Shown here: one piece after another, positions 23,183-63,489 of the stretch | Numbering within the stretch: the first letter of the stretch is position 1 | Layout: the number at the start of each line of letters is the position of its first letter | DNA from: Spirosoma panaciterrae DSM 21099 | GTDB taxonomy: Bacteria; Bacteroidota; Bacteroidia; Cytophagales; Spirosomataceae | Assembly: GCF_000374025.1 (NCBI RefSeq) | Contig: NZ_KB893175.1 | Span: forward strand, 62,001-126,000 | Direction of reading: 5' to 3' | DNA length: 64,000 nucleotides | Program-made: the position numbers and the translations under genes | Notes under the pieces: model-generated | Told to the model about the DNA's origin: nothing | The model's input: only the letters and a program-made list of their open reading frames with translations | Databases searched by the model: none

Positions 23183-23250
23183 GGAAAGGGAGTGAATGGG
23201 GAATGGATGGAACATGATCCCTTTACTTCCTTTCTCTTTTCTCCCTTTCC
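23183..23250. repeat. Low-complexity stem-loop, element A
   Basis: A purine-rich 5' side beginning GGAAAGGGAG (23183-23192) faces a pyrimidine-rich 3' side ending CTCCCTTTCC (23241-23250); these outer 10 bp pair perfectly and the inner part imperfectly. It fills the gap between the formyltransferase stop and the deacetylase ATG. It is the weakest member of the family described in the findings and lacks the CTGRCGCA tip. Confidence 0.5.
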
Positions 23251-23260
23251 TCCCTTTTTT

Positions 23261-24115
23261 ATGAATATCCTTACGTTTGATATTGAAGAGTGGTTTCATA
23301 TTCTGGACAATGCATCGACCCGCACCGAAGCCGACTGGGGACGTTATGAAACCCGTATTCACCAAAATATGGATTTGATTTTCCAGCTTTTGGAGGATAC
23401 AAAAAGCCGGGCTACTTTTTTCTGTCTTGGCTGGGTAGCAGACAAGCATCCTGATGTGATCCGACGTATCGATGCGGCTGGGTATGAGATTGCTACGCAT
23501 TCGTATGCCCATCAACTCGCCTACGAGCAAACGCCCCAGGAGTTTCAGGAAGATTTAACACGCTCGATCAAACATTTGCAGGATTTAACGGGCAAAAAAG
23601 TTCGGTCGTACCGCGCACCGGGTTTTTCGATAAAAGCCTACAATCGGTGGGTGTTTCCGATTCTGATCGAACAAGGGATCGAGATTGACTGTTCCGTCTT
23701 TTCGGCTCGACGGGCGCACGGGGGCGATGCCTCACTGAATATGTTTGAGCCAGGGTATCTGAATGTGGATGGTACACTCCTCAAGGAGTTTCCTATCAAT
23801 ACGGCTGCCGTAGTTGGGCAGGACCTGATTTTTTCGGGTGGGGGCTACTTTCGGTTGTTTCCATATTCGGTTATCAAAGGGTTGATGCGTCGGTCACCTT
23901 ATGTCATGACCTATTTCCACCCCCGCGATTTCGATGCGGAGCAGCCTATGATTCCTGGCCTAAGTCGGGTACGGCGATTTAAATCCTACTATGGGCTTAA
24001 GGGGTGCCTGCCAAAGCTGAAACAACTCCTCATTGAATTTCCATTCGTTGACCTGGCCGAAGCCGACAAACAGGTCAATTGGGAACGCGTGATTCAACGA
24101 ACGGTTTCGCTTTAG
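23261..24115 (+). CDS. NodB-type polysaccharide deacetylase with DUF3473-like C-terminus
   Basis: 284 residues from ATG 23261; an upstream frame to 23120 only reads the intergenic stem-loop. NodB metal-site motifs: Asp7 in LTFDIEEW, His80 and His84 in 'ATHSYAH', and 'YRAPGFSI'. The C-terminal part ('FSGGGYFRLFPYSVIKG', 'YFHPRDFD', 'LSRVRRFKSYYGL') matches the DUF3473 extension found in exopolysaccharide-locus deacetylases. It removes N-acetyl groups from a GlcNAc- or GalNAc-type residue. No signal peptide is seen, so action on a cytoplasmic, lipid-linked intermediate is likely. It pairs in an operon with the formyltransferase: deacetylation could expose the amine that is then formylated, an attractive but unproven sequence. 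Confidence 0.88.
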   Translation: MNILTFDIEEWFHILDNASTRTEADWGRYETRIHQNMDLIFQLLEDTKSRATFFCLGWVADKHPDVIRRIDAAGYEIATHSYAHQLAYEQTPQEFQEDLTRSIKHLQDLTGKKVRSYRAPGFSIKAYNRWVFPILIEQGIEIDCSVFSARRAHGGDASLNMFEPGYLNVDGTLLKEFPINTAAVVGQDLIFSGGGYFRLFPYSVIKGLMRRSPYVMTYFHPRDFDAEQPMIPGLSRVRRFKSYYGLKGCLPKLKQLLIEFPFVDLAEADKQVNWERVIQRTVSL

Positions 24116-24134
24116 CAGTCGGGGTGAAGGGGTA

Positions 24135-25292
24135 TTATAACTTTTTCCTGCAGATTTTTACGTACTCATCCAGCAATTGCTTCGCTACTATATCAATATC
24201 GTAATACGTCTTTACCATATTGGAGGCATTGGTGGCTACCTGCTGGCGAAGTTGATCGTTGGTGAGTAGGTTTTCCAGACCTTCTGTAACGGCTTCTGCC
24301 GTTAAGTTGCTTAACAGACCAGCAGCTTTGTGTTGGCGTATAGCCTCTCCAAAACCAACTCGATCGGAGACCAGGGCAGGTGTACCCGCAGCCATCGCTT
24401 CCAGTACCGCCATGGAAAAGCCTTCAGAATAGGAGGGAAGCGTAAATAAGTCGGCGTCAACAAGAGCGGCTTTCTTGTCATCACCCGTAAGCATTCCGAC
24501 CAACCGGATCGACCCGCCCAGGTTATGCTGCTCAATAAATTGGCGGGTAGCGGCTTCATACCCATCGTCGGAACCAGCAATGGCTAGTACGGTATCGGGA
24601 TGGTTGATAAGGTAGTCTTTAAAGCCGGGCAGGAGAATATCCAGTCCTTTCTTGATATTCAGTCGGCTCATAAACAGAACCAGCTTTTTATCCGAAGGTA
24701 AATTGAATTTTTGCCTGAATGTTCCTTTGGGAGGAAGCTGCACAAAATCGCTCCGTTTTACACCATTCGGAATAATGACGATGTTGGGATGGCGCTCACC
24801 AAGATAACGCAGTACGTCTTCCTGCTCATCGGTATTGTTGATCTGAACCAAGTCGGCCCGGCGCAAGTAGGCCTTTTGGGCCAACGTATCCATGAGCTGC
24901 TTCTTCCAGTTGTTATGGGCATACACCCAACGATCCAGCACTCCGTGAATGGTTATGACTTTAGCTACTGAACGATCGAGCATAAAGGGAGACAATGTCC
25001 CAAAGTGCCATAATCCATGACAGTGAATGACGTCGTACTCATGGATATGTTCCTTAAGATACTGATAAAGCTCTATAGAAAATTCCCGAAAAAAGCGACT
25101 AATACCAGGCGTTCGCTTGCACAAAATCAACCGGGCTCCTTCGGGTACAGTATAGGGCTTTTCGCCGGGAGAAATTGGACTTAAAATGTCGACCTGATGG
25201 CCATACCGAAGCACAACCTGTGTATGGTCGAAGATGATTTTAGGGGGGCCACCCGTTTGCCAGGTGTATGCACAGATATTTAAAATTCGCAT
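24135..25292 (-). CDS. GT4-family glycosyltransferase
   Basis: 385 residues, GT-B fold. The N-terminal domain starts 'MRILNICAYTWQTGGPPKI'; the C-terminal Rossmann domain shows 'KLVLFMSRLNIKKGLDILL' and the retaining E-x7-E motif in 'YSEGFSMAVLEAMAAG'. It is the last gene of the long minus-strand operon that begins near 47.5 kb, convergent with the deacetylase with only 19 nt between them and no clear terminator. It ends 'YVKICRKKL'. The donor and acceptor are unknown. Confidence 0.92.
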   Translation of the reverse strand: MRILNICAYTWQTGGPPKIIFDHTQVVLRYGHQVDILSPISPGEKPYTVPEGARLILCKRTPGISRFFREFSIELYQYLKEHIHEYDVIHCHGLWHFGTLSPFMLDRSVAKVITIHGVLDRWVYAHNNWKKQLMDTLAQKAYLRRADLVQINNTDEQEDVLRYLGERHPNIVIIPNGVKRSDFVQLPPKGTFRQKFNLPSDKKLVLFMSRLNIKKGLDILLPGFKDYLINHPDTVLAIAGSDDGYEAATRQFIEQHNLGGSIRLVGMLTGDDKKAALVDADLFTLPSYSEGFSMAVLEAMAAGTPALVSDRVGFGEAIRQHKAAGLLSNLTAEAVTEGLENLLTNDQLRQQVATNASNMVKTYYDIDIVAKQLLDEYVKICRKKL

Positions 25293-25312
25293 AGATGCCG
25301 CGAAATAACCGA

Positions 25313-26479
25313 TTATTTCGTGATTTTGATAAATCCGTCAAGCATTTCCTGGGCTACGGCTTTAGGCGCATAGGGGGCAATGAACTCTTTAGCAAACTGC
25401 CCCATGAGCCGGGTATTGACGGTTCCATCCATAAACTGTATCAGCCGAGAGGTTAATTGGGTTGGTTGGTCAGGATTAAAAACAAAGCCGTTTTGTCCGT
25501 CATGTACGATGTCAACAGCACAACCACACCGATTGGAGACAATGACAGGCAACCCACAGGCCATGGCTTCATTGACGACGAGCCCCCATGGCTCTGATTG
25601 GCTAGGTAATACCAGTACATCACTCAGAGCCAATACCTCAGGTACTCGAAACCAGGGTCGGCCCGGCAGCAATCTTACCTGGTCAGCAATGCCCAGATGC
25701 TGAATATGATTGGTCAGTCTGTTGTGTTCAGCACCATCGCCCAGTAGTATTAACCCCCACTCTTTTCCATTTATCGACCGCTTGCTGGCTTCATCAAAGG
25801 CCGTAATAAGCATGGGGAGGTTTTTAATTTCGATAAGCCGCCCGACGAAAATAAAGTTTTTAGGGCGTAAACCAGCTACTTGCTGTTGAGAATCCCGTTC
25901 GGGTAATGTTCGTTCGTAAGCCGCTACTATTGCGGGATTATCAACCGCGTTTTTACGGAGCAGAATTTTAGCAGGAGGTACGCCGAGTTGGATGAGGTAA
26001 TCGGCAGCCTGGCTTCCGAAGCAAAAGAACCCATCGCACAGCCGAAAAACCGATCGTTTTAACTGTTCCTTCCAGCCGCCCCGTTGTTGATCTACAGCCG
26101 TACTTTCATTCTGCATAACCACCCGAATGCCCTTACTTTTCGCCCAGATCAGCAATACAAGCTGGGCAGGGTCGTAATAACCAGTCAGGTTGATAACATC
26201 CGGCCGAAACGCGCTTGCTCGCTTTAGGAGTGCCCGAATGCGTTGTGATAGGCTAACTTCCTCAATATACGTGTCGAAAAGTAACTCGTGCTGATAGGAA
26301 TAGGTAGGTATCGATTCGTCAGATGATGCCTCCAGCCCTGCCCGCGAGCGCTCGTTGCGAGCAATCTGTAGCACATTGACGACCAGATCGGCTTGCTGGT
26401 CGACCAATTGTTGTAATGCCTGAAAAACACTCGATTTATAATGGGCCCACAATAGGTTATGGACAATGAGAATACGCAT
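25313..26479 (-). CDS. GT4-family glycosyltransferase
   Basis: 388 residues. The opening 'MRILIVHNLLWAHYKSSVF' is the N-terminal Rossmann strand; the C-terminal half has 'NFIFVGRLIEIKNLPMLI' and the E-x7-E motif in 'SEPWGLVVNEAMACG'. The start codon shares its A with the stop codon of the upstream O-antigen-ligase-like gene (TGATG), so translation is coupled. It is a retaining glycosyltransferase in the cytoplasm, and the sugar cannot be specified. Confidence 0.92.
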   Translation of the reverse strand: MRILIVHNLLWAHYKSSVFQALQQLVDQQADLVVNVLQIARNERSRAGLEASSDESIPTYSYQHELLFDTYIEEVSLSQRIRALLKRASAFRPDVINLTGYYDPAQLVLLIWAKSKGIRVVMQNESTAVDQQRGGWKEQLKRSVFRLCDGFFCFGSQAADYLIQLGVPPAKILLRKNAVDNPAIVAAYERTLPERDSQQQVAGLRPKNFIFVGRLIEIKNLPMLITAFDEASKRSINGKEWGLILLGDGAEHNRLTNHIQHLGIADQVRLLPGRPWFRVPEVLALSDVLVLPSQSEPWGLVVNEAMACGLPVIVSNRCGCAVDIVHDGQNGFVFNPDQPTQLTSRLIQFMDGTVNTRLMGQFAKEFIAPYAPKAVAQEMLDGFIKITK

Positions 26480-27858
26480 CAGGCAGGTTCAGGACTTGGC
26501 ACAACGACATACTTCTCTGGGCTGGCTATCGAAGGTTTATCCGATAAGTGGGCTGGAAATAAATGCTCTACGCCCATAAATCGAATCATCAGACAGATTG
26601 GAAACCAGAATGAAATCTCATTTGGGCGACCATTCGTGAATGCCTGGACCAAAATCAGGAAGTAAAAGTAGGCTAAAAAGATACTTAACGGATTGGGGTT
26701 GGTCTTCATAATGCGCCAGGCTTGCTTCAGAATGAGCCAATTTAACCCACCAAACAGTACGAATCCTAAAATGCCCTGATTGATAATCGACTCCAGTATG
26801 GGAATATCCAGGTAAAGATATTTATAGCCATAGCCTAAAATAAGCATATGCATATGGCTAAATATAACTAACTGAAGAAACTGGGTACTGACCGAACGGT
26901 TGGCTGTAGAGTCATCCAGCACGGCCTTATAGTCGTGACCAGCCGATTTAAGGCCCAGCATGGCATAAACGGTTTCCATGTTTCGCGACAAGAAAGCCGT
27001 TACATAATCGTATAAAATGAGATAGGTGGTGATGTTCCGCTGGAAGAAATAGACAACACCAAGAAACCCTACCACCATAACCATAATCGGGATTGGTTTT
27101 ACCAGACTACGGGCAGCAGTACGAATCTGGGCGGGTCGTACATTGAAATACAGGAAAAAGCAAACTGCAACCAGAAAAGCCAAAATGGCAGAACGGGTTT
27201 GGGTCAATACCAATATGGCAATGTTGAGCACACCGGCGAAAAAAGACAGTAGCCGAAAAATCAGAAGCGTGTTAGGACGGACCAGCCAGATAGCACAGGC
27301 TACAACTCCCATATAGGCATTTCGCGAAAATGCGTGGGGGTTTCCAGAACCAGGGTCACCATTGTTCAGCGTAATAGTAGCCCGTTGGCCAATTGCCCAG
27401 GTTGGGTCCGTTATCAGCGAATAAACGAGCCCCAGGTTGGAGGCTAACGTGAACCAGACAACCACCGGGATAAAATAAGGAATGATTTCATTCGGAATAT
27501 TGATCAGCAGAAACATGAAAATCAATATGTACGTGAAATAAATCATATCCCGGCCTGCATCCTGAAAGCCCGGTACACCATTAAAGATGAACATGTACAG
27601 AATGCTAAGGGTAATATACCCCATGCCCATCCAGAACATAGTGATATTGGGGCGGTAAAGTCGCCGGAAAATGGAAAACGGCACCATGAGCAACAAGCCA
27701 CTGGCCAGAGCTACAGCTGTAAAGGTTGTACTACCTGGAGCCAGCCGCATCGTTTCCCGAAAAAAGAATATAAGTGGATACCCATCAACAATAATGCAGA
27801 TGCCAAGCACCATCCGCATAAAATCGAGAGACCGAAACAGACGAATCAAACCGTTCAT
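26479..27858 (-). CDS. O-antigen ligase/polymerase-like membrane protein
   Basis: 459 residues with about eleven to twelve hydrophobic segments and a large loop in the C-terminal half (about residues 290-345, between two membrane spans), the layout of Wzy polymerases and WaaL ligases. Characteristic features are the 'LTQTRSAILAFLVAVCFFLY' helix and the loop region 'SVSTQFLQLVIFSHMHMLILGYG'. In a locus with an ABC exporter it could ligate the finished polymer to lipid A-core (WaaL role) or polymerise repeat units (Wzy role); sequence alone does not separate these. It is preceded by a 78-nt gap carrying stem-loop element H and coupled to the next gene by TGATG. Confidence 0.78.
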   Translation of the reverse strand: MNGLIRLFRSLDFMRMVLGICIIVDGYPLIFFFRETMRLAPGSTTFTAVALASGLLLMVPFSIFRRLYRPNITMFWMGMGYITLSILYMFIFNGVPGFQDAGRDMIYFTYILIFMFLLINIPNEIIPYFIPVVVWFTLASNLGLVYSLITDPTWAIGQRATITLNNGDPGSGNPHAFSRNAYMGVVACAIWLVRPNTLLIFRLLSFFAGVLNIAILVLTQTRSAILAFLVAVCFFLYFNVRPAQIRTAARSLVKPIPIMVMVVGFLGVVYFFQRNITTYLILYDYVTAFLSRNMETVYAMLGLKSAGHDYKAVLDDSTANRSVSTQFLQLVIFSHMHMLILGYGYKYLYLDIPILESIINQGILGFVLFGGLNWLILKQAWRIMKTNPNPLSIFLAYFYFLILVQAFTNGRPNEISFWFPICLMIRFMGVEHLFPAHLSDKPSIASPEKYVVVPSPEPA

Positions 27859-27877
27859 AAACAGATCATTGGTTTCG

Positions 27878-27934
27878 GTTTTCGGTTTCAGCGTATGGGG
27901 TAAGAGAGACCTATCATACCTGGAAACCGAAAAC
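27878..27934. repeat. Low-complexity stem-loop, element H
   Basis: GTTTTCGGTTTC (27878-27889) and GAAACCGAAAAC (27923-27934) pair perfectly, extended inward by GTATG/CATAC. The left side repeats the word GGTTTC/GGTTTTC. It ends 2 nt before the stop codon of the GT2 gene at 27937. It has the same word-repeat architecture as the other elements but with the T/G-rich arm first. Confidence 0.55.
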
Positions 27935-27936
27935 GG

Positions 27937-28833
27937 TTATCGGGCCTGGCGTAGCCTGAGCCGATGTATAACATACGAAAACTGGCCCTTACCTACAAAA
28001 GCCAGCAATTTGCGTAAGCGACAATAACGCTGCCAGAATGATGCCCCCAGCGATGAGGTCAGCATTGGCTGGTATTTTGTTTTAACAAGCTGGTGCTCCT
28101 GAAGACCAACCGAACTGGCTATCGTCGACGATTTGGCGTCAGGCTGGACCCTGAAGCCTCCCCAGAAGCCGTCAACGTGCCGAAAGGTTGCGCCTGCCTG
28201 TACACCCAGTCGGGCTACAATTTCGTAATCAATCACAAATCGAAGACTTTCATCGAGCAAGCCAACCTGTTCCAGCCGGGCCCGTCGCATGAACAACGAT
28301 TGGTTGAACACCTGCATGCCTTCATAAACCTGGCATTCTACACAAAAGTCTGGCGCCCGCATTTCTTCCTGAATAACGTCCTCTTCGTCGGTAATATACA
28401 TATCCCCGAAAAAAACATCAGTATGGGGGGCTTTGCGCCAGGCTTCGGCAACCCGGCTGAATGCATCCGGTGCAAACACATCGTCGGAGTTTTGAAACGC
28501 CACATAGTCGCCCGTTGCCTGCCGAAACCCTTTATTTATGGCGTCTGTCTGGCCCCGATCTTTTTCGCTTACCCAACCAGCCAGGTAGGGTTCATATTTT
28601 TTTATAATATCAAGGCTGCCATCTGTTGAGCCGCCATCCATAATAAAATATTCGAGCTTCGGATAATTCTGATTCAGAACGCTTAATATAGTCCGCTCCA
28701 AATACTGAGCCTGGTTGAAGGATGGCGTAACCACCGTCAGCTTTGGGTATTTACTCAGATCGAGGTTGTCAGTGGTGGATGGACGATAGGGTTGCGTGAC
28801 AAACGACCGGAGCGTGTTTGGATTCGAATTCAT
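27937..28833 (-). CDS. GT2-family glycosyltransferase
   Basis: 298 residues, GT-A fold. The motifs are 'LTVVTPSFNQAQYLERTIL', 'YFIMDGGSTDGSLDII', 'GWVSEKDRGQTDAINKGF' and 'FQNSDDVFAPDAF' (SDD as the metal-binding DxD equivalent). The 3-nt spacing from the upstream GT4 gene indicates a single operon. It is inverting by family and the sugar is unknown. Product length and motif order are normal for polysaccharide-locus GT2 enzymes. Confidence 0.92.
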   Translation of the reverse strand: MNSNPNTLRSFVTQPYRPSTTDNLDLSKYPKLTVVTPSFNQAQYLERTILSVLNQNYPKLEYFIMDGGSTDGSLDIIKKYEPYLAGWVSEKDRGQTDAINKGFRQATGDYVAFQNSDDVFAPDAFSRVAEAWRKAPHTDVFFGDMYITDEEDVIQEEMRAPDFCVECQVYEGMQVFNQSLFMRRARLEQVGLLDESLRFVIDYEIVARLGVQAGATFRHVDGFWGGFRVQPDAKSSTIASSVGLQEHQLVKTKYQPMLTSSLGASFWQRYCRLRKLLAFVGKGQFSYVIHRLRLRQAR

Positions 28834-28836
28834 GCC

Positions 28837-29946
28837 TTAGCACATAGATTGATACACCTCCAGCGTTTGCTGAGCCGTTTTGTCGCACGAAAACAACTGG
28901 AGCCGCTGGGTTCCTTTCTGTCGCAATTCCACGCAGAGTGCATCGTCGGTAACAATACGTTCGATCGCTTCAGCAATGGAATCATCATGTTCAGGGTCAA
29001 AGTAAAGGGCTGCGTCAGCGCCTACTTCCGGTAGTGAACTTCGATTGCTTAGCACAACCGGGCAACCGCCACTAAACGCTTCCAGTACAGGTAGTCCGAA
29101 ACCTTCGTTCAGTGAGGGGAAAACGAAAGCACGGGCATGCTGGTACAGATTCATCAAACCCGCATCGGTTATGGGCCGATAATGCACCTGTTCGTTCAGA
29201 CGGCTGGCATAAAACAGCGTTTGCTCTTCGTGCGTAAACGACCCACCTCCAGTGCAGATCAGGTGCAGATCTGGATAGCGGTGCAAGATCGGCTGAACAG
29301 CCCGGAAAAAGCCATTAAAGTTTTTGTATAGCCCACGCTTCCCGACATACAGCAGATAGGGGGCAGGAAAAGGCCGGGCTTGCGGATCGAACAAGGGCAT
29401 GGAATCACTTAGGCGGGTTCCCAAATGAATAACTTTAACCTTGTCGGGATCGATGGGAAAGTAACGCAGCAAATCCTGCTTACTAAACTCCGACACACTA
29501 ATGATACAGTCGGCCCGACGGAGAAGCTGCTTTTTTAAATCGTACAGCCCTTCTCCAACCTCTGGATACTCTTTGCCGAAACGTTCGCTGGTAGCATCGT
29601 GAAAGGTTAAGACAAACGGTTTTTTATCAATGGCTTTCAGAAAATACCGATGATAATAGGTCGGGTGAAATACATCGAATTTGCCGGCCCGTACCCGTTG
29701 CAGACTATATAACCGATTAAGAACGGAGGCAACACGGTGTGCATTCCGGATCTGGGCAAGCCCATGATACCGAAAATGATTGCTAAACGAAGCCTGATCT
29801 AAATATTCATTGTTCGATAACCGAAGCGACAGTTCAAAGTCAATGTCTGATCGCTTGGTGAATGAACGCATCAGTTCAAAAAAATAGCGGGACACACCCC
29901 CATAGGGCAGGCCCGTGAACGATTGATGGTCGAAGAGTACTTTCAT
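28837..29946 (-). CDS. GT4-family (mannosyltransferase-like) glycosyltransferase
   Basis: 369 residues from ATG 29946; a longer frame to 29967 adds seven residues of unlikely sequence. The opening 'MKVLFDHQSFTGLPYGGVSRYFFELM' (shortened: KVLFDHQSFTGLPYGG) is typical of the WbdB/mannosyltransferase branch. C-terminal motifs: 'YLLYVGKRGLYKNFNGFF' and 'NEGFGLPVLEAFSGG' (E-x7-E), then 'GADAALYFDPEHDDSIAEAI'. A -7-like box on the minus strand (TATTTTTG, 30003-30010) lies upstream, without a clear -33 element. Confidence 0.92.
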   Translation of the reverse strand: MKVLFDHQSFTGLPYGGVSRYFFELMRSFTKRSDIDFELSLRLSNNEYLDQASFSNHFRYHGLAQIRNAHRVASVLNRLYSLQRVRAGKFDVFHPTYYHRYFLKAIDKKPFVLTFHDATSERFGKEYPEVGEGLYDLKKQLLRRADCIISVSEFSKQDLLRYFPIDPDKVKVIHLGTRLSDSMPLFDPQARPFPAPYLLYVGKRGLYKNFNGFFRAVQPILHRYPDLHLICTGGGSFTHEEQTLFYASRLNEQVHYRPITDAGLMNLYQHARAFVFPSLNEGFGLPVLEAFSGGCPVVLSNRSSLPEVGADAALYFDPEHDDSIAEAIERIVTDDALCVELRQKGTQRLQLFSCDKTAQQTLEVYQSMC

Positions 29947-30002
29947 GTAGGAAAACCTACAAACCAAATGCCGGTTTGTATTTTTCTGAGAAAACGTGCC
30001 GA

Positions 30003-30010
30003 CAAAAATA
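30003..30010 (-). promoter_or_regulatory. Possible -7 box inside the glycan operon
   Basis: Reads TATTTTTG on the minus strand, matching TAnnTTTG. It is 57 nt upstream of the GT4 start at 29946 in a 119-nt gap, the longest gap in this part of the operon. No TTG is found at the expected -33 distance, so an internal promoter is only a possibility. Confidence 0.3.
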
Positions 30011-30065
30011 ACGGTATTTAGCGATAAATCCTTGACCTATGCTGATTATTCGGCGTATACTCTTA

Positions 30066-36432: not shown

Positions 36433-36514
36433 AGGAGTTAAGAGCGAAAAGAGAGAAGGGCTGACGCATCAGGAAAAACGCATTAGACCTTCTCTCTTTT
36501 CGCTCCTAACTCCT
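36433..36514. repeat. Low-complexity stem-loop, element B (CTGACGCA tip)
   Basis: The 27-nt arms 36433-36459 (AGGAGTTAAGAGCGAAAAGA...) and 36488-36514 (...TTTTCGCTCCTAACTCCT) pair at 26 of 27 positions. The 28-nt loop starts with CTGACGCATCAG (36461-36472), itself a mini-hairpin with CTGACGCA at 36461-36468. It occupies the gap between two co-directional minus-strand genes. The 5' arm has one C in 27. Confidence 0.85.
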
Positions 36515-37179: not shown

Positions 37180-37251
37180 GCTTTATAAGGAGTGAGGGGT
37201 GAGGAGCGAGGATTGGGCAGGCAGCCGCACGAAAAAATGATAACTTTTGCC
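37159..37251. repeat. 19-bp direct repeat: gene 5' end copied into the neighbouring stem-loop
   Basis: AAAAATGATAACTTTTGCC occurs at 37159-37177 (codons 2-7 region of the acyltransferase, read on the other strand) and again at 37233-37251, in the loop of element C, 74 nt away. The match is exact over 19 nt. Confidence 0.8.
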
Positions 37252-37277
37252 CTGTGCACTTCTCGCTCCTAACTCCT
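37188..37277. repeat. Low-complexity stem-loop, element C
   Basis: AGGAGTGAGGGGTGAGGAGCGAGG on the left is built from words AGGAGTGAG/GGAGCGAG; CTCGCTCCTAACTCCT (37262-37277) is its partner. AGGAGCGAG (37202-37210) pairs perfectly with 37262-37270 and the outer part pairs at most positions. The loop contains GGCAGCCGCACG, a weak relative of the CTGRCGCA tip, and the 19-bp copy of the acyltransferase 5' end. Confidence 0.7.
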
Positions 37278-37992: not shown

Positions 37993-37996
37993 AGGT

Positions 37997-38079
37997 AGGA
38001 GTTGGGAAGTTGGCGTGGACGTGAAAAGCCAATGACGGCCAGATGGATTCGCTCACCTCGCTTCTGACTTCTCACTCCT
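37997..38079. repeat. Low-complexity stem-loop, element D
   Basis: AGGAGTTGGGAAGT (37997-38010) pairs, with one bulge and two mismatches, with ACTTCTCACTCCT (38067-38079). The right side continues the word pattern (reverse complement AGGAGTGAGAAGTCAGAAGCGAGG). An inner stem TTGGC/GCCAA (38010-38014, 38028-38032) is present. The right arm overlaps the last bases and stop codon of the GT39-like gene. Confidence 0.6.
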
Positions 38080-42765: not shown

Positions 42766-42837
42766 AGTAGTAAGGAGTAAGAAGGGCCGACGACAACGCT
42801 TTTATTTGTCTGTTAGCCTTTCTTATTCCTTACTACT
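42766..42837. repeat. Low-complexity stem-loop, element E
   Basis: AGTAGTAAGGAGTAAGAAGGG (42766-42786) pairs at 19 of 21 positions with CCTTTCTTATTCCTTACTACT (42817-42837). The loop holds GGCCGACGACAACGC, distantly like the CTGRCGCA tip. The flanking sequence GCAGTGAGGAGCGAG continues the same purine words. The right arm ends 1 nt before the permease stop codon. Confidence 0.75.
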
Positions 42838-54756: not shown

Positions 54757-54766
54757 TGAATTAAGT

Positions 54767-56592: not shown

Positions 56593-56596
56593 TGCC

Positions 56597-56631: not shown

Positions 56632-56652
56632 GCTTGGACACCTTTTTACTCA

Positions 56653-57735: not shown

Positions 57736-57749
57736 GTTGGGAATGATTG

Positions 57750-57838
57750 AATGATTGAATGATTGAGTTGTTGAATGATTGAATAGCTGGCGCAAGCTTT
57801 TTTATTCAATCATTCAGCAACTCAATCATTCAATCATT
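57750..57838. repeat. Low-complexity stem-loop, element F (CTGGCGCA tip)
   Basis: The 36-nt arms 57750-57785 and 57803-57838 pair at 35 of 36 positions. The left arm is made of repeats of the word AATGATTG with one GAGTTG interruption, and lacks C entirely. The 17-nt loop contains CTGGCGCA (57787-57794) within AGCT-GGCGCA-AGCT, a mini-hairpin. It separates asnS (stop at 57842) from nuoH (start at 57735). Confidence 0.88.
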
Positions 57839-57841
57839 AGG

Positions 57842-59326
57842 TTAAAACTCGGCTGTTTTGGGGGCTCTGGGGAAAGGAATTACATCGCGGATGTTTCCCA
57901 TGCCCGTCACAAACAGAACCAGACGTTCGAAACCGAGGCCAAAACCGGCGTGGGGAGCGGTGCCAAACCGTCGGGTATCCAGATACCACCAGATGGCTTC
58001 GGGCTCGATACCCACTTCCTGCATTCGAGCAACCAGTTTGTCCAGATCTTCTTCCCGTTGTGAACCCCCAATGATCTCACCAATTCCTGGGAACAAGACA
58101 TCCATAGCGCGAACCGTTGGCCCAAACACCTCTCCACGCGGGCTGGTAGCTGGTTCATGGTCCTGTTTCATGTAGAAAGCCTTAATGGCACGCGGGTAGT
58201 TGGTCAGGATAACGGGTTTCTTGAAGTGTTTCTCGACCAAATACCGCTCATGTTCCGATTGTAGATCAATCCCCCATTTCACCTCAAACTGGAACTGACC
58301 TTTCTTGGCTGGTTTTGAACTGATCAGAATCTCGATTGCTTCGGTATAGGTAAGTCGTACGAACTCGTTGTTGATCACAAACTGAAGCTTTTCGAGCAGG
58401 CCCAGCTCACTCTGTTCTTCTTTCTTTTTGGTTTTATCTTCCTCTTTAAGGCGGTTATCCAGAAAAGCCAGGTCGTCGGCACAATGCTGAATCGCGTATC
58501 GGATTACGGTTTTTACGAAATCTTCCGCCAGATTCATGTTGTCTTCCAGTTCATAAAAAGCCATTTCGGGCTCAATCATCCAGAACTCGGCCAGGTGGCG
58601 GGTCGTGTTGGAGTTTTCGGCGCGGAAAGTAGGTCCGAAGGTGTAAATTTTACCCAGCGCCATTGCGCCCAATTCACCTTCCAACTGACCCGATACAGTC
58701 AGGTTCGTTTCACGTCCAAAGAAGTCCTGACTGTAATCCACTTTACCGTCTTCCGTTAGTGGCGGTTTGATCGCATCCAGCGTGGTTACGCGAAACATTT
58801 CACCGGCCCCTTCGGCATCCGAAGCGGTGATAATGGGCGTGTTGAGGTAGAAAAAACCGTGGTCGTTGAAGTATTTATGAATCGCAAAAGCCAGGGCGTG
58901 CCGAATGCGTAAAATGGCACTGAACGTATTGGTTCGGGGGCGCAGATGGGCAATTTCGCGTAAAAACTCCAGCGAGTGACGCTTAGGCTGAAGTGGATAT
59001 TTTTCGGGGTCGGCTGTGCCATAAATGACAACCTCGGCAATTTTAATTTCTATAGCCTGCCCTGATCCCTGCGATTCCACAATCTGCCCAGTGATGGATA
59101 GGCAGGAACCTGTCGTAATCAGTTTGAGGGTGACTTCGGGAAGCTGGCCAGCCTCAGCTACCGCCTGAATATTCTGTATGGTAGAGCCATCGTTGAGAGC
59201 GATGAAAACGGCGTTTTTACTTTCACGTTTTGTACGGACCCAGCCCTTTACGGTAGCGGTAGAGCCAACAGGCGAATCCACGCCAGTAGCGGCTTTCAAT
59301 AACTGCTTTATCGGTAAGTAACTCAT
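57842..59326 (-). CDS. asnS: Asparagine-tRNA ligase
   Basis: 494 residues from ATG 59326 ([13 protein letters not shown]); a longer frame to 59416 has no family support. OB-fold anticodon-binding domain (about 20-115, '[20 protein letters not shown]'), then the class II catalytic core with motif 2 '[22 protein letters not shown]' (core [15 protein letters not shown]) and motif 3 '[20 protein letters not shown]'. A charged insertion '[14 protein letters not shown]' in the middle is a common bacterial variant. It charges tRNA-Asn with asparagine. A -7 box TACTTTTG lies 34 nt upstream on the minus strand. It is followed by stem-loop element F and nuoH. Confidence 0.96.
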
Positions 59327-59359
59327 ACTAAAATGATGACCCAGTAATAGTTGTGGCCG

Positions 59360-59367
59360 CAAAAGTA
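59360..59367 (-). promoter_or_regulatory. Probable -7 promoter box of asnS
   Basis: Reads TACTTTTG on the minus strand, a perfect TAnnTTTG box, 33-34 nt before the asnS ATG. No TTG is found 19 nt further upstream, so only half the consensus is present. Confidence 0.45.
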
Positions 59368-59446
59368 CGGATTGTCGGTTGAATAGCCCATAAACAATTT
59401 TATTCCGTAAAATCATAAGAGTGTAGGTCAGGGGCGATTACGGCCT

Positions 59447-59454
59447 TATTTTTG
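59447..59454 (+). promoter_or_regulatory. Probable -7 promoter box of the sixA-like operon
   Basis: TATTTTTG matches TAnnTTTG, 41 nt before the ATG at 59496. The -33 TTG is not evident. Together with the asnS box it would make a compact divergent promoter region. Confidence 0.4.
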
Positions 59455-59495
59455 CGTTTATCCAGACAACAGACCACCCACATATTTGTGACACC

Positions 59496-60002
59496 ATGCC
59501 GATAACTTTGTATATCGTTCGCCACGCTAAAGCTGAAGACCGGGCCATGTTTATGACTGATCATGACCGACAACTCACTGCCGATGGCATCATTGCAGCC
59601 GCCAGAATGGGGCGATACCTGCAGGAAAAAGCAGTTTTGCCTGATGTAATTATCAGTAGTACAGCCCCCCGCGCTAAAGACACCGCCAAGGTCATTGCCG
59701 AACAAACTGGATTCGACACATCCCGCATTGACCTAAATCAGTTTCTGTATGAAGGTGGGCCCAAGGCATACCTGGCAGCTTTGAATCGATTGCCTGCTAC
59801 CGTCACTACAGCCATGATTGTAGGACATAACCCCGATGTGTCGTATCTGGGTGAGTACCTGACCCACAAGGATATTGGCTCCATGAGTAAAGGGGCTGTG
59901 GTGGCTATAACATTCGGAAACCTGAACTGGTCCGAAATTTCAGGCCGAACCGGAAATCTGGAATTTCAAATTGGACCAAAGCAGCTTACAAATGAAAAAT
60001 GA
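59496..60002 (+). CDS. sixA: SixA-like phosphohistidine phosphatase
   Basis: 168 residues. Histidine-phosphatase superfamily: the phosphate pocket is 'LYIVRHAKAE' with the nucleophile His10 in the R-H-A variant of the RHG motif, which is the SixA form; 'VLPDVIISSTAPRAKDTAKVI' carries the second Arg, and 'AMIVGHNPDVSYLGEYL' the second His. SixA removes phosphate from histidine in phosphotransfer proteins. Cytoplasmic. It overlaps the 63-aa membrane peptide gene by ATGA, and these two plus the VOC gene look like one operon. Confidence 0.88.
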   Translation: MPITLYIVRHAKAEDRAMFMTDHDRQLTADGIIAAARMGRYLQEKAVLPDVIISSTAPRAKDTAKVIAEQTGFDTSRIDLNQFLYEGGPKAYLAALNRLPATVTTAMIVGHNPDVSYLGEYLTHKDIGSMSKGAVVAITFGNLNWSEISGRTGNLEFQIGPKQLTNEK

Positions 60003-60190
60003 ATCGTAATCGTCGCATATTCGTCATCGTTTTTATCGCCTTCACGACCCTTGTGGTCTTGTTTACCATTGATATGGCTCGTCGGACAACGGCCCCCTGG
60101 AATAAGCGCCGTGAGGTTGAACGGGCTTTGCCGCCTAAAGACGGTACCGTTGCCGATACCATGGCCACAGATACGCTACTTAATCCCTGA
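59999..60190 (+). CDS. 63-residue single-span membrane peptide
   Basis: The ATG overlaps the SixA-like TGA (ATGA), so translation is coupled. Basic start (MNRNRR), one hydrophobic helix (IFVIVFIAFTTLVVLFTI), then a basic and acidic tail 'DMARRTTAPWNKRREVERALPPKDG' of about 35 residues. The exact coupling and clear topology support a real gene. No known family is recognised. Its fixed place behind a phosphohistidine phosphatase gene suggests a membrane partner or anchor, which is inference only. Confidence 0.72.
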   Translation: MNRNRRIFVIVFIAFTTLVVLFTIDMARRTTAPWNKRREVERALPPKDGTVADTMATDTLLNP

Positions 60191-60196
60191 TAAGCC

Positions 60197-60586
60197 ATGT
60201 TGCAACTGACCGCTGTTCATCACATTGCCATTATCTGCTCCGATTATGAACGGTCGAAGCAGTTTTATACGAGGGTAATGGGATGTACGATACTGGGCGA
60301 ATACTATCGGGCAGAACGGCAGTCCTACAAGCTGGATCTGGCCTTAAATGGTCAGTATCTGATTGAGCTTTTCTCGTTTCCCAATCCGCCCAAACGACCA
60401 TCAAGACCAGAGGCTGCAGGGCTACGTCATCTGGCCTTTGCGGTGGCTAATCTGGACACTGCTATTCAGCACCTGACCGAACAGGGCGTGGTAACGGAAC
60501 CCATTCGGGTAGACGAACATACCGGACGTCGGTTTACCTTCTTTGCCGATCCGGATGAGCTGCCCCTGGAACTATATGAACTGTAG
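60197..60586 (+). CDS. VOC-family (glyoxalase I-like) metalloenzyme, YaeR-like
   Basis: 129 residues, one pair of beta-alpha-beta-beta-beta modules. The four metal ligands of glyoxalase I are in place: His8 or His9 ('TAVHHIAI'), Glu57 ('YLIELFS'), His78 ('GLRHLAF') and Glu125 ('LPLELYEL'). The length and the 'GLRHLAFAVANLDTAI' context match YaeR/GloA2 rather than classical lactoylglutathione lyase. The substrate is unknown. The gene begins 6 nt after the membrane-peptide stop codon, and its own stop lies inside a bidirectional terminator. Confidence 0.88.
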   Translation: MLQLTAVHHIAIICSDYERSKQFYTRVMGCTILGEYYRAERQSYKLDLALNGQYLIELFSFPNPPKRPSRPEAAGLRHLAFAVANLDTAIQHLTEQGVVTEPIRVDEHTGRRFTFFADPDELPLELYEL

Positions 60587-60609
60587 AGACGCATCATTGC
60601 GTCTCTACA
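60582..60609. terminator. Bidirectional terminator of the GTAGAGACGC type
   Basis: TGTAGAGACGCA (60582-60593) and TGCGTCTCTACA (60598-60609) pair perfectly around TCAT. The stem includes both stop codons of the convergent genes: TAG of the VOC gene (60584-60586) and the TAG of the aminotransferase (60605-60607). I recall similar GTAGAGACG palindromes dispersed in Bacteroidota and cyanobacterial genomes. Confidence 0.85.
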
Positions 60610-61798
60610 TGAGTACGTCACGCAATACCTCAATTAGGGCGTCAACGTCATTGGCATCGTTATATACATGCGGGGCAATGCGAAGGACGCGGGCACGGGC
60701 CGAAACCGATACATTCCGCTTCAAAAGCGCCTGTTGAACAGCCATAGGGTCGGTATGTTCTGGAAGCCATAAGCCTACCAGATGATGACTACGACCCATA
60801 TGTTCGTTTTCGGGCTCGATCTGGCATCCTAAGTTCTCAAGAATGGGCCAGGCATCGGCCATTAAACCGTTGGTATAAGCCTGAATGCGTGCAGGCTGCC
60901 AATCGATCAGTTGGGTTAAGGCGGCTTCAAGCATAGGCATTTGCAGGAAATGGGTATGCTCTCCTACGTTATACCGATACGCTTTTGAGCGATAGGCAGG
61001 CTGGTAGTCCATCAGCCTATGAAATTGATTGCTGTCGAGCCGGTTCATCCAACTCTCTTCCAGCGGAATCCCGTTATCGAAAGCCGGGCCAAAATACGCT
61101 AGCCCCAGCGAGTAGGGGCCCATGAGCCACTTATATCCTGCACAAATAACGGCATCTGGTTGTATATCCGCCAGATTGAACGGAAGTGCCCCAATGGCCT
61201 GTGTGCCATCAATTACCAGCCAGGCTCCAACTTCTCTGGCCCGTTTGCTGATGGCTTCCAGATCGAACCGGATGCCGTACATCCAATGAACGGGGGGAAC
61301 GACCACCAACGCTGTAGTGGCGTCAATGGCGTCGAGCAGCCGCTGATTCCAAAGTGCTCCTTTCGGAAACTGAGTAGGCATAGCGACGGTCGTAACGGTT
61401 AAATCGAGTTCGAGGCTTACACGATCCCAGGCATACACATCGCTCGGAAATTCGTCGGTAATCGTTACCAGGTGCTGCCCTGCCCGAATGCCGGGTTTTC
61501 GATGAAGATTACGAGCCACTACAGCCATGCCGTACGAAACAGAGGGTATTATAGCGATGCGCTCAGGATCGGGGTTGTGGATCAGTTCGGAAAAAAGAAT
61601 CCGTGTGCGAGCGGCACCCGTAAAAAAATCATCGGGGTGTAAGCCAAATGGGTTGGCCTGCTGCGAAAGCGCCGTATGACCCGCCTGTTCGACAGAGCGA
61701 CTAAAGGGAGCACGGGTAGCGCAATTCAGGTAATGGATGGACGTTGGTAAATTGAACTGCTCTTTTTGTGAGCGAAGAGGAATTGAGTTGATGAGCAT
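60605..61798 (-). CDS. Class V aminotransferase-fold PLP enzyme
   Basis: 397 residues from ATG 61798 (MLINSIPLRSQKEQF). A longer frame to 61876 overlaps the divergent gene and is less likely. Fold type I motifs: 'IAIIPSVSYGMAVVARNL', 'VVVPPVHWMYGIRFDLEAI', 'WLVIDGTQAIGALPFNLADI' and the PLP lysine in 'CAGYKWLMGPYSLGLAYFG'. The family includes cysteine desulfurase-like, kynureninase-like and isopenicillin-N-epimerase-like enzymes, and this sequence is nearest in style to the epimerase-like group with no assigned substrate. It converges on the VOC gene and diverges from the tudor-like gene. Confidence 0.9.
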   Translation of the reverse strand: MLINSIPLRSQKEQFNLPTSIHYLNCATRAPFSRSVEQAGHTALSQQANPFGLHPDDFFTGAARTRILFSELIHNPDPERIAIIPSVSYGMAVVARNLHRKPGIRAGQHLVTITDEFPSDVYAWDRVSLELDLTVTTVAMPTQFPKGALWNQRLLDAIDATTALVVVPPVHWMYGIRFDLEAISKRAREVGAWLVIDGTQAIGALPFNLADIQPDAVICAGYKWLMGPYSLGLAYFGPAFDNGIPLEESWMNRLDSNQFHRLMDYQPAYRSKAYRYNVGEHTHFLQMPMLEAALTQLIDWQPARIQAYTNGLMADAWPILENLGCQIEPENEHMGRSHHLVGLWLPEHTDPMAVQQALLKRNVSVSARARVLRIAPHVYNDANDVDALIEVLRDVLM

Positions 61799-61875
61799 AT
61801 AAAAAGTTGATTGCTGAAAAAAATTGGCACGGGGTTTGTAAAGGCATGATTGAAACCTAAAACCTACCCCATACA

Positions 61876-62412
61876 ATGACTACATTACTAGGCATTGGCT
61901 CACGTGTTCGACACGAAGAATTTGGCGATGGCGTTGTCATTAATCTAAAAGCCAATGGCTATACAATTACGTTTATCGAGCATGGCGTGAAAGTAATCAA
62001 ATTCGACGCACCGCTCAGTATCCTCGATGCGCTGGAACCCGATGGTGATCTGGTAAGTCTGTTCGATGTTGAACAATCACTCACTCGGGTTCTTCAGCGC
62101 TGGGTCGACCAGACCGAACTTGTGCCACTCGGCGATAAGTGGAAAGGCGGCAAACTCATTCTGAAACCCGGTCGGGCCGATCTGGCCCAGAAAGAGATGC
62201 CTATCGATGCGTTCTTTCATAAAATCGTGATGGTTCGGGACCGCCTTCGCGTACTCGAACAGCGGGTAAATGCCAGTGCCCTCGACGATGAAGAGAAAAT
62301 AAATATTCAACAATATATCACCCGGATCTACGGCAGTTTAACCTCGTTCAATTTGCTGTTTAAGAATCAGAACCAACAGTTTGTGGGTGAAAAAGCATTG
62401 GCCGATGTGTAG
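61876..62412 (+). CDS. Conserved unknown with tudor-like N-terminal domain
   Basis: 178 residues. The N-terminal 55 residues 'IGSRVRHEEFGDGVVINLKA' to 'FIEHGVKVIKFDAPLSIL' follow the pattern of the small SH3/tudor domain at the end of UvrD/PcrA-type helicases and CarD-like proteins (G-x-x-V-x-H-x-x-F-G-x-G). The remainder is helical: 'MPIDAFFHKIVMVRDRLRVLEQ' and a final helix bundle. Cytoplasmic, no signal. An interaction with RNA polymerase, DNA or helicase partners is suggested only by the tudor-like fold. The gene ends 63 nt before a good terminator. Confidence 0.75.
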   Translation: MTTLLGIGSRVRHEEFGDGVVINLKANGYTITFIEHGVKVIKFDAPLSILDALEPDGDLVSLFDVEQSLTRVLQRWVDQTELVPLGDKWKGGKLILKPGRADLAQKEMPIDAFFHKIVMVRDRLRVLEQRVNASALDDEEKINIQQYITRIYGSLTSFNLLFKNQNQQFVGEKALADV

Positions 62413-62474
62413 GAATAACGCTTGGTCAAAACACAACTATTTCATATAGTTTTGGGTTAGTTAGATTGGAGGCT

Positions 62475-62508
62475 CCCCGCTACTGTTTCAGTGGCGGGGA
62501 CTTTTTTT
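62475..62508 (+). terminator. Terminator after the tudor-like gene
   Basis: CCCCGCTACTG (62475-62485) pairs with CAGTGGCGGGG (62489-62499) with one T-G wobble and a TTT loop. A run of seven T follows (62502-62508). Confidence 0.9.
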
Positions 62509-62511
62509 AAA

Positions 62512-62567
62512 GAGCGAAAGAGTGAAAGAGCGGAATACTGGCGCATACCATTTTCACTCTTTCGCTC
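62512..62567. repeat. Low-complexity stem-loop, element G (CTGGCGCA tip), extended by 8-nt tandem repeats
   Basis: GAGCGAAAGAGTGAAA (62512-62527) and TTTCACTCTTTCGCTC (62552-62567) pair perfectly over 16 bp. The loop carries CTGGCGCA (62538-62545). The right arm runs on as tandem TCGCTCGT copies to about 62586, which also complement the left flank AAAGAGCGA. Positions 62557-62586 are read on the minus strand as the last ten sense codons of xerD. Confidence 0.85.
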
Positions 62568-63489
62568 GTTCGCTCGTTCGCTCTTTAAATCCTCTGGCTC
62601 TTGGATGGTACTCCCTTAACGTTTGCTGGAGATAGTCGCGGTCGAGGTGGGTGTAGATTTCGGTAGTGGTAATGGATTCATGGCCAAGCATTTGCTGAAC
62701 CGCCCGGAGATCGGCTCCTCCTTCGATGAGGTGGGTGGCAAACGAATGCCGGAATGTGTGTGGACTAATCGTTTTTTTGACCCCAGCTTCGGTAGCCAGT
62801 TTTTTGATCGTTGTAAACACCGAAATGCGTGATAGTTGCTTGCCACGCAAATTCAGAAAGATAGTGTCTTCATCCCCTTTTTGTACATCCAACTGGCTAC
62901 GTACATGCTGTACATAGATACGCGTATAGTGCATGGCGTCTTCGCCGATTGGTACCAGCCGGACTTTATCGCCTTTGCCCAGAACCCGAATAAAACCCGC
63001 ATCGAAAAAGCAGTTGGTCAGGCGCAGGTTGAGTAATTCCGAAACCCGGAGACCGGAACTATACAGCACTTCGAGCATGGCCCGATCGCGGGTGCCCCCG
63101 GGGGTTGAGAGATCGATGGCGTTCAGAATGGCTTCAACCTCCGGAAAACTCAGGGTATCGGGCAACTGACGACCCAGTTTTGGCCCTTTGAGCTGCTGCG
63201 TGGGGTCATGCTGAATCAGATTTTCGAGCAACAGGTATTTAAAAAAAGATTTTAACCCCGACAACATCCGCCCCTGACTATGTGCCGATAAACCGAGTTC
63301 GCCCAGATACTTCAGAAAATTCATCAGCTCTTTTTCCGTAACCTGCATGGGCGTTCGGGCAGGATCGGTCAGAAGAATGTATTCGTAAAGTTTTTCGGCG
63401 TCGTGCAGATACGCTTCCACCGAATTTTCGGCCAGCGACCGTTCCAGCTTGAGGTAGTTCTTAAAGGCGTTTATATAACTTTGCCACAT
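62554..63489 (-). CDS. xerD: Tyrosine recombinase XerD
   Basis: 311 residues from ATG 63489 (MWQSYINAFKNYL). N-terminal core-binding domain and C-terminal catalytic domain with the full set Arg148 ('SGLRVSELL'), Lys172 ('LGKGDKVR'), His244 and Arg247 ('SPHTFRHSFATHL'), His270 ('MLGHESI') and the nucleophile Tyr279 ('TTEIYTHLD'). With XerC it resolves chromosome dimers at dif. The last residues, KERTSERAKE, are encoded by stem-loop element G and are not part of the family, so the native C-terminus was probably near 'EYHPRARGF'. The upstream region is shared with the divergent aroQ gene. Confidence 0.93.
   Translation of the reverse strand: MWQSYINAFKNYLKLERSLAENSVEAYLHDAEKLYEYILLTDPARTPMQVTEKELMNFLKYLGELGLSAHSQGRMLSGLKSFFKYLLLENLIQHDPTQQLKGPKLGRQLPDTLSFPEVEAILNAIDLSTPGGTRDRAMLEVLYSSGLRVSELLNLRLTNCFFDAGFIRVLGKGDKVRLVPIGEDAMHYTRIYVQHVRSQLDVQKGDEDTIFLNLRGKQLSRISVFTTIKKLATEAGVKKTISPHTFRHSFATHLIEGGADLRAVQQMLGHESITTTEIYTHLDRDYLQQTLREYHPRARGFKERTSERAKE

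What the first reader, a model, noticed from the sequence alone, without database searches (positions are those of the whole stretch)
23183..62586. A family of intergenic stem-loops with variable low-complexity arms and a shared CTGRCGCA tip
Eight gaps (elements A-H, at 23.2, 27.9, 36.4, 37.2, 38.0, 42.8, 57.8 and 62.5 kb) contain inverted repeats whose arms are strings of short words: AGGAGTKAG/GGAGCGAG in B-E, AATGATTG in F, GAGCGAAA in G, GGTTTC in H. Arms of different elements do not share one sequence, yet stems of up to 36 bp are kept with 0-2 mismatches in B, E, F and G, so compensatory change or copying between arms must occur. In B, F and G the loop carries CTGACGCA or CTGGCGCA; in B (CTGA/TCAG) and F (AGCT/AGCT) it sits at the tip of a mini-stem. 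In seven of eight the 5' arm is purine-rich and nearly free of C. Conserved tip with drifting, word-repeat stem is not the design of ordinary terminators, REP or MITE elements I know of. Possible roles are mRNA processing or stability between co-directional genes, a binding site for a protein, or a template-switching product.
Basis: partly seen in the sequence, partly recalled or inferred. Interest (0 to 1): 0.75.

Follow-up and report, generated by a model that had tools for sequence, protein, structure and literature searches.

The report
Self-copying hairpins behind Spirosoma genes
Many genes of this Spirosoma bacterium are followed by a long DNA hairpin whose two halves appear to copy each other, so that pairing persists while the sequence changes between close relatives; this makes it a natural place to study how perfectly paired stems arise.

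Summary
The elements are real, but part of a larger system. B (36.4 kb), E (42.8), F (57.8) and G (62.5) are strong inverted repeats, H (27.9) is moderate, A, C and D are weak or decayed. In 1.42 Mb of this genome 225 strong hairpins were found, 3 inside called genes; in tandem gaps they lie a median of 9 nt after the stop codon. The genus is Spirosoma.

In 22 hairpins alignable between two species, 38 base pairs changed on both sides and 33 on one side; independent mutation predicts about 4 double changes. Stem mismatches show no G-U over A-C bias on the mRNA strand (62 against 76, 60 other). Loops are inverted between relatives in four gaps. This fits template switching between arms better than RNA-level pairing selection.

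The tip is enriched but in a minority: 9 of 186 apices exactly, 27 of 299 with up to one mismatch. It matches one end of the spacer of GTAG-tagged REP dimers of this genus. Refilling of gaps by unrelated hairpins is only suggestive (p 3e-4 loosely, 0.06 strictly). Function is untested.

The parts
36433..36514 (-). Element B: word-repeat hairpin (AGGAGTTAGGAGCGAAAAGAG) filling the gap between the hexapeptide-transferase and glycosyltransferase genes; its loop is inverted relative to two close relatives
36461..36468 (+). Tip CTGACGCA in the loop of B
37195..37277 (-). Element C: weaker hairpin between the WbqC-like gene and the hexapeptide-transferase gene; the same gap holds a hairpin of score 12 or more in 13 of 29 genomes, with different words
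37995..38071 (-). Element D: decayed hairpin upstream of the WbqC-like gene; perfect 32-bp stem in the orthologous gap of G001, loop inverted between G010 and G027
42766..42837 (-). Element E: AGTAGTAAGGAGTAAG hairpin between ABC-transporter genes
57741..57838 (-). Element F: AATGATTG-word hairpin between a class II tRNA synthetase gene (lysS-like) and an NADH dehydrogenase subunit gene (nuoH-like); 23 of 30 genomes have a hairpin within 137 nt behind the synthetase gene, with many different stems; G001 lacks it (12-nt gap)
57787..57794 (+). Tip CTGGCGCA in the loop of F
62506..62589 (.). Element G: GAGYGAAA-word hairpin in a convergent gap, overlapping the 3' end of an integrase ORF
62538..62545 (+). 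Tip CTGGCGCA in the loop of G
27864..27941 (-). Element H: GTTTTCGGTTTC hairpin, not purine-rich; weaker, partly similar hairpins in the same gap of G001 and G021
23183..23258 (+). Element A: imperfect purine/pyrimidine inverted repeat resembling the GGGAGGAAAGGG word family
16478..16540 (.). Added by me: perfect 29-bp hairpin with A/T tracts in a convergent gap (bidirectional-terminator-like); G001 and G021 have perfect 24- and 30-bp stems there with different outer arms

Best explanation
These are palindromes that sit behind stop codons in Spirosoma. SHOWN: between close species the arms of alignable hairpins change mostly in matched pairs; some loops flip; mismatches show no RNA wobble bias; the tip matches one end of the spacer of GTAG-tagged REP dimers of the genus. 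INFERRED: during replication the nascent strand switches template at the hairpin and copies one arm from the other (or across the fork), which homogenises the arms and sometimes inverts the loop; slippage in the 7-8 nt words lengthens or rewords the arms; REP dimers that landed in or near such hairpins left their spacer as the shared tip. The 3'-end position suggests that the hairpin is at least tolerated, perhaps useful, as an mRNA 3'-end barrier, but exact base pairing appears to be maintained at DNA level.
For: Double changes: in 22 of 37 shared hairpins with alignable stems (469 bp) 38 complementary double changes (in 18 of the 22) against 33 single ones (10 G-U, 12 A-C, 11 other); 2.5 expected if independent; simulation with the same kind of detection step gives 4.0 per 469 bp at equal divergence. 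No wobble bias on the mRNA strand in tandem gaps of this genome and relatives: 62 G-U, 76 A-C, 60 other in 148 hairpins (p 0.27); 87, 91, 82 in a looser set of 200. Inverted loops: B, G000 against G001 and G021 (inverted score 17 and 19, forward 6, p 2e-4; G001 against G021 forward 27); D, G010 against G027 (25 inverted, 12 forward); F, G005 against G004: both stems 29/29 paired, four double changes, no single change, 18-nt loop exactly reverse-complemented; C1_108 (inverted 9, forward 4, p 0.007). Spacer CCGGATGGTTNTTGCTGACGC at up to 2 mismatches: 13 of 18 genus genomes, reversed control 0 in all 150 genomes searched; it lies mostly within GTAGAGACGC-type arms, but within GAGYGAAA arms in G000, G001 and G021 (L219, L244, L226).
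Against: In 13 of 37 shared gaps the best stems are not alike above the shuffle threshold; on re-check 5 of 12 such gaps still hold traces of the other species' hairpin, leaving 7 apparently unrelated. Copying between arms does not by itself make those, so insertion must be added. Homologous recombination between arms would also invert loops and is not separated from template switching. Seven of 9 significantly matching loops between G000 and G001 are not inverted, and in gap D the forward match is also significant (p 0.0012). The 22 stems were chosen for being paired in both species. No events within one species were seen, and polarity was not reconstructed. For B, F and G the link of the tip to the REP spacer rests on a match of about 9 nt.
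Confidence: 0.66

Rival explanations
1. RNA-structure selection: the hairpins are terminators or mRNA 3'-end stabilisers, and pairing is kept by compensatory mutation through G-U intermediates.
For: Position: 131 of 656 tandem and 63 of 172 convergent gaps hold one against 12 of 178 divergent gaps, median 9 nt after the stop codon in tandem gaps up to 400 nt. A hairpin lies behind the lysS-like gene in 23 of 30 genomes.
Against: No G-U excess (62 to 76; 10 to 12 between species). Only 15 of 124 long-loop tandem-gap hairpins have a T-rich foot, against 13 of 35 with short loops. The 3' arms of B, C, E and F end only 12-15 nt before the next start codon.
Confidence: 0.15
2. Mobile palindromes: REP-dimer-like elements with several arm families insert repeatedly behind genes and replace one another; stems are perfect because they are young.
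For: Word families are dispersed (GAGYGAAA pattern, up to 1 mismatch: 316 partly overlapping hits in this genome, 0 in the reversed control; 39 of 150 family genomes); GTAG-type REP dimers lie behind the lysS-like gene in G007 and in gap C1_150 of G001; the spacer is shared; 7 of 37 shared gaps hold apparently unrelated hairpins.
Against: Alignable stems differ by scattered double changes, not by whole replacement. In 29 Y1-transposase loci no word-repeat hairpin or full spacer directly flanks the gene, although other REP dimers do flank some; one locus (L271) has the 8-mer GCTGACGC near the gene on both sides. Copies of a word family differ in word order and number.
Confidence: 0.3
3. The tip is a functional binding site (protein or RNA) conserved by selection while the arms drift.
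For: Tip with up to one mismatch in 27 of 299 apices against a mean of 2.1 (maximum 9) for permuted motifs and 3.3 (maximum 8) for shuffled apices, on arms of several unrelated families.
Against: 272 of 299 apices lack it; a longer 21-nt match is the spacer of a REP dimer, so common descent can explain the sharing; loops change orientation.
Confidence: 0.1
4. Chance pairing of low-complexity purine-rich DNA.
For: Arms are low-complexity; A, C and D fold only slightly better than shuffles.
Against: B, F, E and G have z of about -6 or lower; 37 of 50 gaps with a hairpin in G000 have one in G001, against 14 of 156 without.
Confidence: 0.02

Closest known systems
Template-switch mutations at inverted repeats (Monttinen & Loytynoja 2022, PMC8794818; Abraham & Hazkani-Covo 2021, PMC8604942)
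   Same: Homogenised arms, several compensatory changes at once and inverted loops or spacers.
   Different: PMC8794818 found compensatory change together with loop inversion in only 6 of 9,931 rRNA cases and not enriched (first part of Results read). Here loops of 16 to about 30 nt are inverted in four intergenic hairpins of one bacterial genus, over stems of about 19-36 bp.
REPINs and GTAG/CGTC-tagged REP elements (Bertels & Rainey 2011, PMC3116915; Di Nocera 2013, PMC3733652)
   Same: Two inverted arms around a spacer, behind genes, dispersed; the tip matches the spacer of GTAG-tagged dimers of this genus.
   Different: Arms of B-G are 7-8 nt word repeats without a terminal GTAG tag; no transposase tied to them; stems differ between copies.
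Intrinsic transcription terminators
   Same: Hairpin just after the stop codon, also in convergent gaps.
   Different: Long loops, mostly no T tract, in B, C, E and F only 12-15 nt before the next start codon.
Quasipalindrome mutation hotspots of E. coli (PMC7202029; only the start of its abstract in a search listing seen)
   Same: Imperfect inverted repeats as sites of template-switch mutation.
   Different: Here spread over many gaps of a genome and over evolutionary time.

Membership tests
REPIN / GTAG-tagged REP dimer | conserved REP core in each arm ending in a GTAG (or CGTC) tag | tested here: not met
   Arms of A-H are word repeats or other sequences with no terminal GTAG tag (read by eye); relatives do carry GTAGAGACGC arms
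REPIN / GTAG-tagged REP dimer | two inverted arms separated by a spacer | tested here: met
   the GTAG-dimer spacer also lies in GAGYGAAA arms (L219, L226, L244)
REPIN / GTAG-tagged REP dimer | association with a RAYT (Y1) transposase gene | tested here: inconclusive
   29 Y1 loci from 7 genomes (13 + 16): some flanked by other REP dimers (e.g. L182, L183, L266, L269), none directly by word-repeat arms or the full spacer; L179 and L263 hold matching pieces over 1 kb away; L271 has GCTGACGC near the gene on both sides, in a GTGCGGG-rich array
Intrinsic terminator | hairpin near the 3' end of the gene | tested here: met
Intrinsic terminator | T (U) tract at the 3' foot | tested here: not met
   15 of 124 long-loop hairpins in tandem gaps; none seen after the 3' arms of B, C, E and F
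Intrinsic terminator | transcripts end there | not testable with these tools
   no RNA data
Inverted repeat evolving by template switching | arms homogenised by matched double changes | tested here: met
   38 observed, 4.0 simulated
Inverted repeat evolving by template switching | spacer inversion between relatives | tested here: met
   gaps B, D, F and C1_108
Inverted repeat evolving by template switching | switch event observed in replication | not testable with these tools
   needs mutation-accumulation or reporter experiments
Rfam RNA families | match at the gathering score | tested here: not met
   0 matches in window 22500-63500

The most novel reading that the evidence does not exclude
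Spirosoma genomes hold hundreds of lasting 'hairpin slots' behind genes, in which a palindrome is a self-maintaining DNA state: any arm sequence that enters the slot is copied onto the opposite arm, so structure is inherited without sequence. Mobile REP dimers and word-repeat arms are interchangeable occupants that exchange spacers, which gives conserved tips on unrelated stems.
Probability: 0.22. Interest if true: 0.85.

Novelty: new variant of a known kind. Interest (0 to 1): 0.65.

Why it matters
How long perfect stems arise, and stay paired while their sequence changes, is an open question. Compensatory change is normally read as evidence of RNA function. Here 18 of 22 alignable stems of two close relatives carry matched double changes without the G-U bias that RNA selection should leave, and some loops are flipped. 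If this holds, covariation alone is not safe evidence of RNA function in such genomes, and Spirosoma offers many natural replicates for measuring template switching. It also links a shared hairpin tip to the spacer of REP dimers.

Tried and rejected
Slot refilling: the first test gave 9 of 16 against 12 of 95 gaps (p 3e-4). When hairpins with any trace in the other species' gap were also removed, it fell to 4 of 11 against 12 of 95 (p 0.06). Transposase link: Y1 (PF01797) loci were examined in G000, G001, G021 (13 loci) and in G007, G012, G020, G002 (16 loci); they carry other REP dimers, and the word-repeat arms could not be tied to a transposase. An Rfam scan of window 22500-63500 gave nothing. 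A loose degenerate scan for the two-sided tip had a reversed-sequence background close to its hit count (83 against 73 on the first contig shown) and was dropped. A tRNA control for the wobble test (10 tRNAs, 18 G-U, 0 A-C; a first parse read 0 tRNAs) is not a fair control because, to my recollection, ARAGORN does not draw A-C as a pair; so the wobble test has no positive control. Ordinary terminators were rejected for most long-loop elements for lack of a T tract. Literature: only named Spirosoma (3 papers and 1 paper listed, judged by listing; none about such repeats); (12 of 26 listed) and 77 searched mechanism and REP terms; open-licence PMC text only.

Limits: genes were called by my own codon-score script, not by a standard annotator. 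1.42 Mb of the 8.13 Mb genome and 0.64 Mb of G001 were read. Rows dropped before counts: one search used 22 of 37 shared hairpins (aligned over 10 bp or more and better than all 60 shuffles); one search used 206 of 830 gaps with both flanks found; searches dropped divergent gaps and gaps under 50 nt in the slot test; one search left out loops under 8 nt; one search counted 29 or 30 genomes of 36 and took a fixed 110 nt (gap D) or 137 nt (gap F) instead of exact gap ends. At up to 3 mismatches the spacer pattern hits 31 of 36 genus genomes (165 hits), but the reversed control also hits 22 of 36 (30 hits, my count from the table), and in G000 itself 2 hits equal 2 control hits; the 2-mismatch search is the cleaner one.
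Full report
What is in the window. Searches confirm the inverted repeats. The strong ones are B (36433-36514), E (42766-42837), F (57741-57838) and G (62506-62589); H (27864-27941) is moderate; A, C and D fold only slightly better than shuffles (z -2.38, -2.57, -1.96). On the transcribed strand B, C, E and F nearly fill the gap between two genes: the 5' arm starts 1-11 nt after a stop codon and the next start codon follows the 3' arm by 12-15 nt (coordinates). The flanking genes are ordinary (glycosyltransferase, hexapeptide transferase, WbqC-like, ABC transporter, NADH dehydrogenase subunit, class II tRNA synthetase). The genus is Spirosoma: the orthologous contig of G021 has the same length and range as a named Spirosoma sp. 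48-14 record.

How common they are. I read 1.42 Mb of the 8.13 Mb genome (and the window) and called genes with a codon-score script. 225 strong hairpins were found, 3 inside genes. They occur in 131 of 656 tandem gaps, 63 of 172 convergent gaps and 12 of 178 divergent gaps; in tandem gaps up to 400 nt the median distance to the stop codon is 9 nt. Several word families appear: GGGAGGAAAGGG, GAGYGAAA, AGGAGTKAG, GGGCATAGGGG, AATGATTG, GTATGATATAGGAT, and longer non-word families such as TTTTGTCATCCCGACGCAGGAGGGATC.

The same gap in relatives. Behind the lysS-like gene (F) 23 of 30 genomes hold a hairpin of score 12 or more within 137 nt, with many different stems; G007 carries a GTAGAGACGCAA REP dimer there, while G001 has only a 12-nt gap and no hairpin. 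The figures for gaps C, B and D are 13, 7 and 6 of 29. Since about a fifth of tandem gaps hold a hairpin anyway (slightly different criteria), only F and perhaps C stand out as lasting places. Between G000 and G001, 206 gaps could be paired: 37 have a hairpin in both, 13 only in G000, 14 only in G001, 142 in neither (odds ratio 29, p 1.5e-18). Common descent explains much of this: in 24 of the 37 the best stems are more alike than shuffles. A re-check found 12 pairs not alike (the threshold is random), of which 5 still hold traces of the other species' hairpin, leaving 7 apparently unrelated. Does a gap with a hairpin attract or need a new one? Loosely, an unrelated G001 hairpin lies in 9 of 16 gaps where G000 has one and in 12 of 95 where it has none (p 3e-4); strictly, in 4 of 11 against 12 of 95 (p 0.06). 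This is suggestive, not shown.

How the arms change. In 22 alignable stems (469 base pairs) 393 pairs are unchanged, 38 changed on both sides and stayed Watson-Crick, 33 changed on one side (10 G-U, 12 A-C, 11 other), 5 other. Independent mutation with a similar detection filter gives 4.0 double changes at the observed divergence, 8.2 at 0.2 and 20.9 at 0.3, but at 0.3 only 11 of 2,200 simulated stems survive detection. On the mRNA strand of tandem gaps, in this genome and relatives, G-U and A-C mismatches are about equally frequent: 62 and 76 (60 other) in 148 hairpins (binomial p 0.27), 87 and 91 (82 other) in a looser set of 200. RNA-level selection on pairing should favour G-U. The equality points to a process that treats both DNA strands alike, though weak selection on very long stems could look the same, and the test lacks a fair positive control.

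Loop inversion. In gap B the loop of G000 matches the reverse complement of those of G001 and G021 (score 17 and 19 inverted, 6 forward), while G001 and G021 match each other forward (27). In gap D, G010 and G027 match better inverted (25) than forward (12, itself p 0.0012). In gap F, G004 and G005 carry two hairpins in series; the second has 29-bp perfect stems that differ by four double changes and no single change, and its 18-nt loops are exact reverse complements. C1_108, a GTAAYGCGGGTGG REP dimer, is a weaker case (inverted 9, forward 4). Of 9 loops that match at p < 0.01 between G000 and G001, 7 are forward and 2 inverted. Arm homogenisation plus spacer inversion is the signature named in PMC8604942 (abstract seen). 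PMC8794818 (abstract, first part of Results, and Discussion read) calls a compensatory change with loop inversion the strongest possible support for template switching and found it extremely rare in rRNA. Recombination between the arms would leave the same mark.

What the tip is. Exact CTGRCGCA lies in 9 of 186 apices of this genome. With up to one mismatch GCTGRCGCA lies in 27 of 299 apices over seven species regions, against a mean of 2.1 (maximum 9) for permuted motifs; it sits on AGGAGTKAG, GAGYGAAA, AATGATTG, GGTTTAC-type, purine-only and GTAGAGACGC arms. The last case revealed a longer spacer, CCGGATGGTTNTTGCTGACGC. At up to 2 mismatches it occurs in 13 of 18 genus genomes and in 8 of the other 132 family genomes searched (7 of 36 genera in all; only one genus besides Spirosoma has several copies), with no reversed-control hit in any of the 150. 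At up to 3 mismatches it hits 31 of 36 genus genomes (165 hits), but the control also hits 22 of 36 (30 hits), and in G000 hits equal control hits. In the 20 loci chosen for close matches, 19 show it with GTAGAGACGC-type REP arms, intact or partly so, and one (L244) within GAGYGAAA arms; among the loci several 3-mismatch or unlocated ones are in unrelated sequence. L219 (G000), L244 (G001) and L226 (G021) are one orthologous place, judged by their flanks, where the spacer lies within GAGYGAAA arms. The GAGYGAAA word is wider: 39 of 150 family genomes, 8 of 36 genera. I infer that the tip is the remnant of a REP-dimer spacer. For B, F and G this rests on a match of about 9 nt; the 21-nt match is at L219, outside the window.

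Function. The position behind genes fits a 3'-end role, and PMC3733652 (parts 1-2 of 8 and search passages read) reports the same position for REP elements. Only 15 of 124 long-loop hairpins in tandem gaps have a T-rich foot, against 13 of 35 with short loops, so most are not classical terminators. No RNA data were available. Rfam has no match in window 22500-63500.

Verdict. A real, widespread and unusual system. The parts (template switching at inverted repeats, REP dimers) are known; I found no description of the combination in Spirosoma in two searches naming the genus (open PMC text only).

Noticed in passing
16478-16540: Convergent-gap hairpin with A6/T6 tracts whose outer arms are perfect but different in G001 and G021, so even terminator-like hairpins turn over by matched arms.
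   Followed up: partly
L182 and L183 (also L266, L269): Y1 transposase genes flanked by GTAACGCGGGTGGAAACCCGC-type hairpins: a RAYT with its own REP dimers in Spirosoma; in L182 and L269 the loops of the two flanking copies are in opposite orientation.
   Followed up: partly
L271:1300-1360 and 2060-2220: In G007 a Y1 gene lies between copies of GCTGACGC; the downstream ones sit in a GTGCGGG-rich tandem array, without CCGGATGG or word arms.
   Followed up: partly
62554-62589: The 3' end of the integrase ORF (62554-63510, minus strand) runs into the 3' arm of element G, so the hairpin encodes its C-terminal residues.
   Followed up: no
L028, L032, L054, L055: A family of about 33-bp stems TTTTGTCATCCCGACGCAGGAGGGATCTTCGGG resembling CGTC-tagged REP dimers (resemblance judged from PMC3733652 and recall).
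   Followed up: no
L249: In G012 the piece spacer plus GCGTCTCCT is repeated in tandem, suggesting slippage within a REP dimer.
   Followed up: no
L211, L217, L237, L254: REP arms with an inserted CGCACCGGCGGACCGGC-like block, a nested variant seen in several species.
   Followed up: no
36.4, 37.2, 38.0 and 42.8 kb: Four gaps of one gene cluster share the AGGAG word family in G000, which may mean local spreading between gaps.
   Followed up: no
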